62,385 bases of DNA. It comes from a virus. Positions 14,945 to 46,581 of the stretch are shown here, in pieces. Below the pieces are notes generated by a model. That model was given only the letters and a program-made list of their open reading frames with translations. It did not search any database and was not told the origin of the DNA. The number at the start of each line of letters is the position of its first letter. Position 1 is the first letter of the stretch. Location of the stretch: IMG/VR virus record IMGVR_UViG_3300034106_004872, positions 1 through 62,385 of that record; one strand, given 5' to 3'. A program made the translations under genes and the position numbers.

Positions 14945-15175
14945 ATGTTAGCAGTTAGTTTAGTTCTCGGTTCTTTTTTAATTGTAATGTTTCTCATAGT
15001 CGGACTTATTGGTGGTTGGGTTGCGAGAGAATATATGATGAATTATCAAGATAGACCAAAACTTCATCCAGAATTTTTTGATGATAATGGAAATGTTATT
15101 CCTGATGAGGTTCTTGCAATAAGTTTCAATCCAGACTTTTTTGATGATGAAGAACTTGATGATGAAGAAGACTAA
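14945..15175 (+). CDS. Small membrane-anchored acidic protein (76 aa)
   Basis: Starts MLAVSLVLGSFLIVMFLIVGLIGGWVAREY: one N-terminal transmembrane helix (about 3-26). It is followed by a cytoplasmic tail with strong acid runs at the C-terminus (FFDDEELDDEED). A CCCGGAGAAAAG ribosome site precedes the ATG. This plan is common among conserved small proteins of T4-like cyanophages; function unknown. Confidence 0.68.
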   Translation: MLAVSLVLGSFLIVMFLIVGLIGGWVAREYMMNYQDRPKLHPEFFDDNGNVIPDEVLAISFNPDFFDDEELDDEED

Positions 15176-16212: not shown

Positions 16213-16260
16213 AAAAAGGTAGCAGCATGATACAGTTTTGGTATCAGTTGCTACTTTTTT
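16213..16260 (+). terminator. Strong intrinsic terminator
   Basis: Long hairpin AAAAAGGTAGCA ... TGCTACTTTTTT with an inner GATAC/GTATC stem, ending in six T. It ends the transcript from the left and directly abuts the promoter of the riboswitch unit. Confidence 0.85.
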
Positions 16261-16276
16261 GATTTTATGCTAATAT
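16248..16276 (+). promoter_or_regulatory. Promoter for the riboswitch unit
   Basis: TTGCTA (16248-16253), 17-bp spacer, TAATAT (16271-16276). The predicted start (about 16283) coincides with the first base of the riboswitch. The -35 box lies in the terminator's right arm. Confidence 0.55.
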
Positions 16277-16283
16277 ATACAGT

Positions 16284-16331
16284 ACGTTGATCGCACACGC
16301 GACGGAAGTACCATTTGGGAAGCAACGCACC
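16284..16331 (+). promoter_or_regulatory. Glutamine riboswitch (glnA/Downstream-peptide type)
   Basis: The core matches the known glutamine aptamer. P1 is CGTTG (16285-16289) with CAACG (16323-16327), enclosing a CGC-ACAC-GCG hairpin, the diagnostic GACGGAAGTA (16301-16310), and GGGAAG before the closing strand. The Downstream-peptide version of this RNA is known from cyanobacteria and marine cyanophages, where it precedes very short genes, exactly as here. It sits immediately after a predicted transcription start and 30 bases before the DUF4278-like gene. It would let expression follow cellular glutamine, that is nitrogen status. Confidence 0.85.
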
Positions 16332-16360
16332 AATACCTAAAAAGTAAAGGAGCAAACCTA

Positions 16361-16498
16361 ATGTCCAAAGTCGTATATCGTGGTGTTGAATATGATACCC
16401 AAAAGCGTATTGAATACCAACAGCAAATGATGCAGCAACCCCAACAATACAACGAAACCTATCGTGGTATTAAGTATGTAAAGGAGGGGCACAAATGA
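16361..16498 (+). CDS. DUF4278-like small protein (45 aa)
   Basis: Two YRG motifs, VVYRGVEYD at 4-12 and TYRGIKYV at 33-40, flank a Gln-rich middle (YQQQMMQQPQQY). This is the layout of DUF4278 proteins found in cyanobacteria and cyanophages; function unknown. An AAGGAG ribosome site lies 8 bases upstream. It is the first gene under the predicted glutamine riboswitch and overlaps the next gene by ATGA, so both are probably made in step with nitrogen status. Confidence 0.75.
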   Translation: MSKVVYRGVEYDTQKRIEYQQQMMQQPQQYNETYRGIKYVKEGHK

Positions 16499-16596
16499 AC
16501 ACTTATTTCGTTCGCTATCTTAAAAGAAAAGCAAAGAAGGAAAAACTCCTTCAAGTAGCACAACTGAATATGGCAAAAAAACCACAAGTTGCCTGA
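16495..16596 (+). CDS. Small basic peptide (33 aa)
   Basis: Starts MNTYFVRYLKRKAKKEK and is strongly basic with one amphipathic helix. A very strong AAGGAGGGG ribosome site (16479-16487) and the ATGA overlap with the DUF4278-like gene make translation likely. The unit ends directly at a perfect terminator (16601). Function unknown; basic peptides of this size from cyanophages could bind RNA or a host protein. Confidence 0.6.
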   Translation: MNTYFVRYLKRKAKKEKLLQVAQLNMAKKPQVA

Positions 16597-16600
16597 AACT

Positions 16601-16627
16601 GGGAGGATTGACATCCTCCCTTTTTTT
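16601..16627 (+). terminator. Perfect intrinsic terminator
   Basis: GGGAGGAT / ATCCTCCC (8 bp, tetraloop TGAC) followed by seven T. It ends the riboswitch operon. Confidence 0.92.
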
Positions 16628-46507: not shown

Positions 46508-46581
46508 GCAGGTTTAGCTCTCTGGTCGAAAGCACCGAACTCATAATTCGGCTAAGGTGGGTTCGATCCCCACAACCTGCA
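46508..46581 (+). tRNA. tRNA with CAU anticodon (Met or Ile2)
   Basis: Canonical cloverleaf: acceptor GCAGGTT/AACCTGC (7 bp, ends A), D stem from GCT/AGC, anticodon stem CCGAA/TTCGG with loop CTCATAA (anticodon CAU), T arm GTGGG/CCCAC with loop TTCGATC. CAU reads AUG as tRNA-Met; if C34 is lysidinylated it would read AUA as tRNA-Ile2. No initiator-specific features are clear. Confidence 0.85.

What the first reader, a model, noticed from the sequence alone, without database searches (positions are those of the whole stretch)
16248..16596. Glutamine riboswitch controlling two tiny phage genes
The motif (P1 CGTTG/CAACG, GACGGAAGTA, GGGAAG) begins at the predicted transcription start and is followed by a DUF4278-like 45-aa gene and a 33-aa basic gene, then a perfect terminator. 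It is a self-contained 350-bp unit sensing glutamine. The peptides may be the effectors with which the phage responds to host nitrogen status, and they are small enough to be missed by annotation.
Basis: partly seen in the sequence, partly recalled or inferred. Interest (0 to 1): 0.78.

Follow-up and report, generated by a model that had tools for sequence, protein, structure and literature searches.

The report
Phage glutamine switch driving mini-genes
A virus of freshwater cyanobacteria carries a small RNA sensor for the amino acid glutamine in front of two tiny protein genes, and in sister viruses the same sensor has whole protein genes tucked inside its folded loops, a gene layout I could not find described before.

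Summary
Confirmed. The window has a type I glutamine riboswitch aptamer (RF01739, 43.1 bits against a gathering score of 35) at 16283-16331. It is followed by a 45-aa DUF4278-like gene, an overlapping 33-aa basic gene, and a strong terminator. Both ORFs are under purifying selection (pN/pS 0.31 and 0.17). Phage S-SRM01 has both genes, annotated, at the same place. The 33-aa protein is homologous to a helix that marine cyanophages fuse to the same DUF4278-like domain, so the two probably act together. In host cyanobacteria the same riboswitch drives DUF4278 fused to GS-inactivating (IF7A) or PII-binding (PirA) helices. The phage helix matches neither, so its target is open. In the sampled viral contigs, all 89 ribosome-site-led genes behind such riboswitches encode fewer than 70 aa. 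The main surprise lies in relatives, not in the window. Many cyanophages (S-SM2, Syn1, S-RIM2, S-IOM18 and others) carry an expanded aptamer with genes of 49-75 aa inside its P2 and P3 loops. Start codons sit in helix strands, and the helices covary (0 of 5000 shuffles for two of three). I found no earlier report in the held literature. Glutamine binding, ON/OFF sense and protein targets are untested.

The parts
16219..16259 (+). upstream intrinsic terminator (GTAGCAGCATGATAC / GTATCAGTTGCTAC then T6) that insulates the unit; its 3' arm overlaps the putative -35
   Evidence: fold -14.8 kcal/mol, z -4.61, 0 of 200 shuffles
16248..16276 (+). putative promoter: TTGCTA - 17 - TAATAT with TG before the -10; start expected near 16283
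   Evidence: read by eye from sequence; below the scan threshold; S-SRM01 has a similar sequence at the same place; inference
16283..16331 (+). type I glutamine riboswitch aptamer (P1 16285-16289/16323-16327, P2 16291-16294/16299-16302, P3 16311-16312/16317-16318)
   Evidence: RF01739, 43.1 bits, gathering 35, E 4.5e-6
16328..16360 (+). leader with ribosome-binding site AGGAG 16348-16352; weak SD-masking hairpin (CC..UAC/GUA..GG) next to P1
   Evidence: the equivalent hairpin is strongly conserved in simple viral leaders, weak in this one
16361..16498 (+). ORF1, 45 aa, DUF4278-like, two YRG motifs
   Evidence: PF14105 E 5.5e-4, 20.7 bits (below gathering 25.3); phrog_5049 E 1.9e-10; pN/pS 0.31 over 32 sequences
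16495..16596 (+). ORF2, 33 aa, basic helix, overlaps ORF1 stop by ATGA
   Evidence: pN/pS 0.17 over 7 sequences; hhalign to the N-terminal helix of marine DUF4278-like fusion proteins, probability 92%, E 5.6e-7
16601..16627 (+). downstream intrinsic terminator GGGAGGAT-TGAC-ATCCTCCC-T7
   Evidence: z -4.06

Best explanation
This is a glutamine-responsive cassette of a freshwater T4-like cyanophage, a relative of Synechococcus phage S-SRM01. A promoter that abuts the aptamer starts a short mRNA. The type I aptamer binds L-glutamine (inferred from the family) and changes access to the ribosome site of a translationally coupled gene pair: a DUF4278-like mini-protein and a basic helix. By analogy with the cyanobacterial genes under the same riboswitch, where DUF4278 is fused to a helix that inhibits glutamine synthetase (IF7A) or binds PII (PirA), the two phage proteins most likely form one small regulator that adjusts host nitrogen assimilation when glutamine is plentiful. 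Shown here: the aptamer match, the coding nature of both ORFs, the conserved position before thyX and phoH, and the link between ORF1 and ORF2 through fusions in both orders. Inferred: ligand binding, the ON sense (taken from work on cyanobacterial gifB, PMC6316151), translational control, and the target.
For: Aptamer RF01739 43.1 bits. Same order (riboswitch, DUF4278-like, helix ORF, thyX, phoH) in S-SRM01, which is also the closest isolate to the window at 77% identity over 46% of a 20-kb query. pN/pS 0.31 (ORF1) and 0.17 (ORF2). ORF2 is homologous to the helix fused in front of the DUF4278-like part in marine phages. A 43-aa protein in L012 has a YRG motif followed by the same helix (BLAST 5e-7 to separate ORF2-like proteins; hhalign E 8.9e-8 to the marine fusions). 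Host genes behind RF01739: DUF4278+IF7A (E 4e-13), IF7A-like alone (E 3.6e-9), DUF4278+PirA (E 1.8e-16). In 72 simple viral leaders an SD-masking hairpin next to P1 pairs far better with its own partner (-7.4 kcal/mol) than with others' (-5.1, sd 0.17), which fits translational control.
Against: ORF2 matches neither IF7A nor PirA and lacks the three conserved arginines of the IF helices. The SD hairpin in the window itself is weak, and forcing the aptamer did not change SD accessibility in the folding model (0.42 against 0.43), so the switching mechanism is not explained. The direction (ON or OFF) is not tested. The structure model of ORF1 is low confidence (pLDDT 61).
Confidence: 0.6

Rival explanations
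1. The riboswitch is real but the peptides do not act on nitrogen metabolism. Glutamine serves only as a gauge of host condition or of infection progress, and the peptides act elsewhere (host takeover, lysis timing, other enzymes).
For: Phage glutamine riboswitches precede many unrelated tiny families, all under 70 aa. In marine phages the locus borders thyX, nrdC, talC or speD, not nitrogen genes. ORF2 matches no nitrogen regulator.
Against: DUF4278 is the domain that cyanobacteria themselves attach to IF7A and PirA under this same riboswitch.
Confidence: 0.3
2. ORF1 plus ORF2 is a split phage version of IF17 that directly inactivates glutamine synthetase.
For: Same riboswitch and same DUF4278-plus-basic-helix composition as host IF17-type genes.
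Against: ORF2 gives no IF7A match, lacks the conserved arginine triad, and hhalign gives about 1% probability. IF-mediated control of GS is said to be ruled out so far in marine picocyanobacteria (PMC6316151).
Confidence: 0.12
3. The aptamer is a remnant acquired with a host gene and no longer switches; expression of the pair is constitutive.
For: The SD hairpin in the window is weak and the folding model shows no switching. P1 differs from the usual one (CGUUG/CAACG rather than CGUUC/GAACG).
Against: The P1 change is compensatory, the core GACGGAAGUA and GAAG are intact, and the element is kept across distant cyanophages.
Confidence: 0.1

Closest known systems
Type I glutamine riboswitch (glnA RNA, RF01739), with cyanobacterial gifB/IF17 as the studied case (PMC6316151)
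   Same: Aptamer consensus met; followed by a DUF4278-like gene
   Different: Phage-borne; DUF4278-like part stands alone (45 aa) with a separate 33-aa helix; no IF7 helix; borders thyX and phoH
Glutamine-II riboswitch (Downstream-peptide, RF01704) in marine picocyanobacteria
   Same: Short downstream proteins; some nested relatives score near or just above this model's threshold
   Different: The window does not match it. In the nested relatives the second half of the binding site comes after an internal gene, with the glnA-type GAAG and P3
Glutamine riboswitch of phages Melnitz, Mosig and AG-345-P14 (PMC9004378), and mentions in cyanophages (PMC9964418, PMC9602691)
   Same: Glutamine riboswitch in a marine phage, T4-like in the cases read
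   Different: Reported there with tmRNA; no DUF4278-like/helix pair and no gene inside the aptamer is described in the passages I read
PirA and IF7A small regulators
   Same: Small helical proteins joined to DUF4278 under RF01739 in hosts
   Different: ORF2 does not match either model

Membership tests
RF01739 type I glutamine riboswitch | covariance-model score at or above gathering | tested here: met
   43.1 bits against 35
RF01739 type I glutamine riboswitch | P1, P2, P3 with conserved GACGGAAGUA and GAAG | tested here: met
   alignment to model positions 1-53 with no broken pair flagged
RF01739 type I glutamine riboswitch | binds L-glutamine and controls the downstream gene | not testable with these tools
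   needs in-line probing and a reporter
RF01704 Glutamine-II riboswitch | model match at or above gathering in the window | tested here: not met
   no match in the window
DUF4278 (PF14105), ORF1 | score at or above the Pfam gathering score | tested here: not met
   20.7 bits against 25.3, E 5.5e-4; therefore called DUF4278-like
DUF4278 (PF14105), ORF1 | YRG repeats shared with riboswitch-linked cyanobacterial proteins | tested here: met
   Y6 R7 G8 and Y34 R35 G36 invariant in alignment A2; YRG repeats in host proteins
IF17/IF7A glutamine synthetase inactivating factors, ORF2 | match to the IF7A model NF052599 | tested here: not met
   no match at E up to 5, while a host gene matches at E 4e-13
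IF17/IF7A glutamine synthetase inactivating factors, ORF2 | three conserved arginines (columns 7, 20, 27 of alignment A3) | tested here: not met
   hhalign probability about 1%
PirA PII-interacting regulator, ORF2 | match to NF050139 | tested here: not met
   no match at E up to 5; Aphanocapsa DUF4278-PirA protein matches at 1.8e-16

The most novel reading that the evidence does not exclude
At this locus and its equivalents, cyanophages have turned a glutamine aptamer into a nested gene holder. In many relatives the single aptamer has an expanded P3 loop, and often an expanded P2 loop, that contain complete genes of 49-75 aa. Start codons lie in helix strands, and stop codons lie in or next to the closing strand. 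Glutamine binding would close the helices around these genes, while ribosomes on them would open the aptamer. One RNA would thus toggle between internal genes (low glutamine) and the downstream DUF4278-like regulator (high glutamine). The window carries the simple allele. The architecture is supported by covariation; the toggle is inference.
Probability: 0.55. Interest if true: 0.85.

Novelty: new variant of a known kind. Interest (0 to 1): 0.6.

Why it matters
It ties a metabolite-sensing RNA in abundant cyanobacterial viruses to a defined pair of tiny proteins, and gives host parallels (DUF4278 joined to IF7A or PirA) that suggest where to look for the target. The nested relatives, if confirmed, show that a riboswitch aptamer can hold protein genes in its loops, so that translation and ligand sensing share one fold. 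Rfam scored most of the nested isolate copies that I scanned below its gathering threshold, and many cultured phages of marine Synechococcus and Prochlorococcus carry the internal gene, so the idea can be tested at once.

Tried and rejected
RF01704 as the class: no match in the window. Fold energy as evidence for the aptamer: no better than shuffles. ORF2 as IF7A or PirA: no match, and hhalign about 1% for IF7A-type helices. ORF2 as kin of the common 'W..YC' 28-38 aa family behind other viral glutamine riboswitches: hhalign 0.3%. A simple SD-release mechanism computed by forcing the aptamer: no change in SD accessibility in the window or in 95 leaders. Tandem aptamers as the reading of the nested elements: in 15 hairpin-only elements the outer fold is more stable than the tandem fold in all 15, and joining the outer halves scores a median 22.2 bits against 14.6 and 10.3 for the separate halves. 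The SD-hairpin test on nested leaders was negative (-4.38 against -4.35).

Full report
What is in the window. cmscan places a type I glutamine riboswitch (RF01739) at 16283-16331 with 43.1 bits against a gathering score of 35. It is the only riboswitch above threshold in the 62-kb record. A promoter-like -10 (TAATAT with TG before it, 16271-16276) would start transcription at the first base of the aptamer; this is read by eye and is below the scan threshold. After a short leader with AGGAG come ORF1 (45 aa) and ORF2 (33 aa), which overlap by ATGA, then a terminator (z -4.06). An upstream terminator at 16219-16259 (z -4.61) makes the unit insulated on both sides.

Are the genes real? ORF1 has relatives in isolates: DSL-LC02 (96%), S-SRM01 (69%), P-SSM2 and P-SSM5 (47%). 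In S-SRM01 both genes are annotated at the same place, before thyX and phoH. S-SRM01 is also the closest isolate to the window (77% identity over 46% of a 20-kb query). Across loci, ORF1 has pN/pS 0.31 (32 sequences) and ORF2 0.17 (7 sequences). Both are protein-coding.

What are the proteins? ORF1 is DUF4278-like: two YRG motifs, PF14105 E 5.5e-4 but 20.7 bits, below the 25.3 gathering score. ORF2 matches no library family with confidence. Marine cyanophages have a 55-aa protein, helix plus two YRG motifs, behind the equivalent riboswitch. The ORF2 profile matches that helix at 92% probability, E 5.6e-7. A 43-aa protein in L012 has the reverse order, YRG then helix. Fusion in both orders is good evidence that ORF1 and ORF2 work together. 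The model of the marine fusion gives a confident helix (residues 3-23, block pLDDT above 80) and low confidence for the rest.

Host parallels. RF01739 was found in 31 of 146 cyanobacterial genomes. Among the loci that I read, many genes behind the aptamer are DUF4278 repeats followed by an IF7A-type helix (one tested: NF052599, E 4e-13), some are short IF7A-like proteins alone (one tested: E 3.6e-9), and one, in an Aphanocapsa MAG, is DUF4278-type repeats followed by a PirA domain (NF050139, E 1.8e-16). The link between DUF4278 and glutamine riboswitches was already published (PMC6316151). ORF2 itself matches neither IF7A nor PirA, so 'nitrogen regulator' is an inference from composition, not a family assignment.

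What phage glutamine riboswitches control. Of the distinct ones with more than 400 bases downstream, 89 had a ribosome-site-led ORF, and all 89 were under 70 aa. The same scan in genome contigs gave 45 such ORFs, 18 of them 70 aa or more, including ammonium-transporter-like and glutamate-synthase-like genes by sequence appearance. The promoters differ by type: 50 of 87 simple viral elements have a T4-late-like [TC]AAATA just upstream, while 55 of 90 nested elements have a TTGAC-N16-20-TANNNT promoter.

The nested relatives. In S-SRM01, DSL-LC02, P-SSM2, P-RSM6, ACG-2014h and S-SM2 the aptamer is not compact. The order is: P1 strand A1 (CGTTC), P2, GACGCAAGTA, P3 strand X1, B1 (GGAACG), short loop, A2 (CGTTC), ATCCC, an ORF, GGGACGCAA, P3 strand X2, GAAG, B2 (GAACG), then the DUF4278-like gene. 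A pattern scan found at least 120 stretches; 94 distinct elements were parsed. In 71 an ORF of 49-66 aa lies between the strands of helix P4 (UCCCA/UGGGA); in 23 a short hairpin takes its place. In 31 a second ORF (ORF0) of 61-75 aa lies in the P2 loop.

Tests of the nested structure. The P4 strands that bracket the ORF pair better than any of 5000 reshufflings (paired fraction 0.90 against 0.75), with changes such as UCCC/GGGA, UCUA/UAGA and UCCU/AGGA; the two outermost letters of the 3' strand were fixed by the search pattern, the others were free. The P3 strands X1/X2 also exceed all 5000 shuffles, with AGUCG/CGACU, AGUCA/UGACU and GG../..CC exchanges; one position of P3 is often a C-A mismatch. 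Pairing of P2 around ORF0 is weaker (104 of 5000). In the AGUC type the short loop before A2 reads GAG (making a GGAG ribosome site) in 43 of 44 elements with an ORF and in 0 of 8 without (Fisher p 1.2e-8). Tight groups of ORF0 and of the internal ORF have pN/pS 0.32 and 0.43; looser groups reach 0.6-0.7 with synonymous change near saturation. The search was circular for the P1-like strands, which the pattern required. As an independent route, tblastn with the S-SM2 internal protein hit 311 phage records; all five that I examined (S-H38, S-RIM2, S-IOM18, Syn1, ACG-2014d) carry the nested element, none reaching Rfam's gathering score. I did not examine the other 306. Among the earlier isolates DSL-LC02, P-SSM2/P-SSM5 and P-RSM6 just reach a gathering score on the first half alone, while S-SRM01, ACG-2014h and S-SM2 do not.

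Reading of the nested form. The only complete type I aptamer uses A1 with B2 and X1 with X2, with the internal gene in its P3 loop. The outer fold is more stable than two tandem aptamers in 15 of 15 hairpin-only elements. DSL-LC02 is nearly identical to the window between the aptamer's end and the start codon of ORF1, so the window and DSL-LC02 look like simple and nested alleles of one leader, although in DSL-LC02 the cassette lies elsewhere in the genome. A toggle between internal and downstream genes is my inference.

Literature. Glutamine riboswitches in marine phages are known (PMC9004378, PMC9964418, PMC9602691). Weinberg et al. 2010 noted short downstream ORFs, tandem glnA RNAs, and a conserved peptide sequence discussed in a supplement I could not read (PMC2864571). 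Klaehn et al. 2018 and Ames and Breaker 2011 are not held. Searches for genes inside a riboswitch aptamer found nothing relevant. So 'not described before' means not found in the library held here.

Verdict. The window's element is a glutamine riboswitch with a phage-specific gene pair. Its interest comes mainly from what it leads to: the fusion evidence for the pair, the host parallels, and the nested relatives.

Noticed in passing
L251, L374:629-875, L372:623-875, L373:449-878, L249 and others: Glutamine aptamers of cyanophages with whole protein genes inside the P2 and/or P3 loops (S-SM2, Syn1, S-RIM2, S-IOM18, P-RSM6); at least 120 stretches in viral contigs.
   Followed up: yes
L232 / L377 (Aphanocapsa MAG): Glutamine riboswitch followed by a 129-aa protein with DUF4278-type YRG repeats and a C-terminal PirA domain (NF050139, 59.8 bits): a riboswitch-controlled DUF4278-PirA fusion.
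   Followed up: partly
L002-L121: Viral glutamine riboswitches lead several unrelated tiny families (28-38 aa with W..YC, 49 aa ending NPFYP, 50 aa ending DPRLQKI, 64 aa with GTSGY); the three longer ones had no Pfam match above cut-off. Many sit right behind a terminator-like T run or a tRNA end and a late-type TAAATA promoter.
   Followed up: partly
L155, L160, L164, L167 and others (SAR86): Glutamine riboswitches in SAR86 genomes lead a conserved 71-aa protein (MTKWEYKIVDHSNSTAMGYS...) of unknown role.
   Followed up: no
L249:1956-2141: A manA RNA (RF01745, 188 bits) lies between the nested glutamine element and the transaldolase gene in cyanophage P-RSM6, two regulatory RNAs in a row.
   Followed up: no
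window 14945-15175: A 76-aa DUF2973 protein (PF11189, 24.4 bits, above its cut-off) upstream of the cassette; S-SRM01 has a DUF2973 gene at the same place.
   Followed up: no
window 46508-46581: A tRNA, the only other RNA family match above gathering in the window.
   Followed up: no
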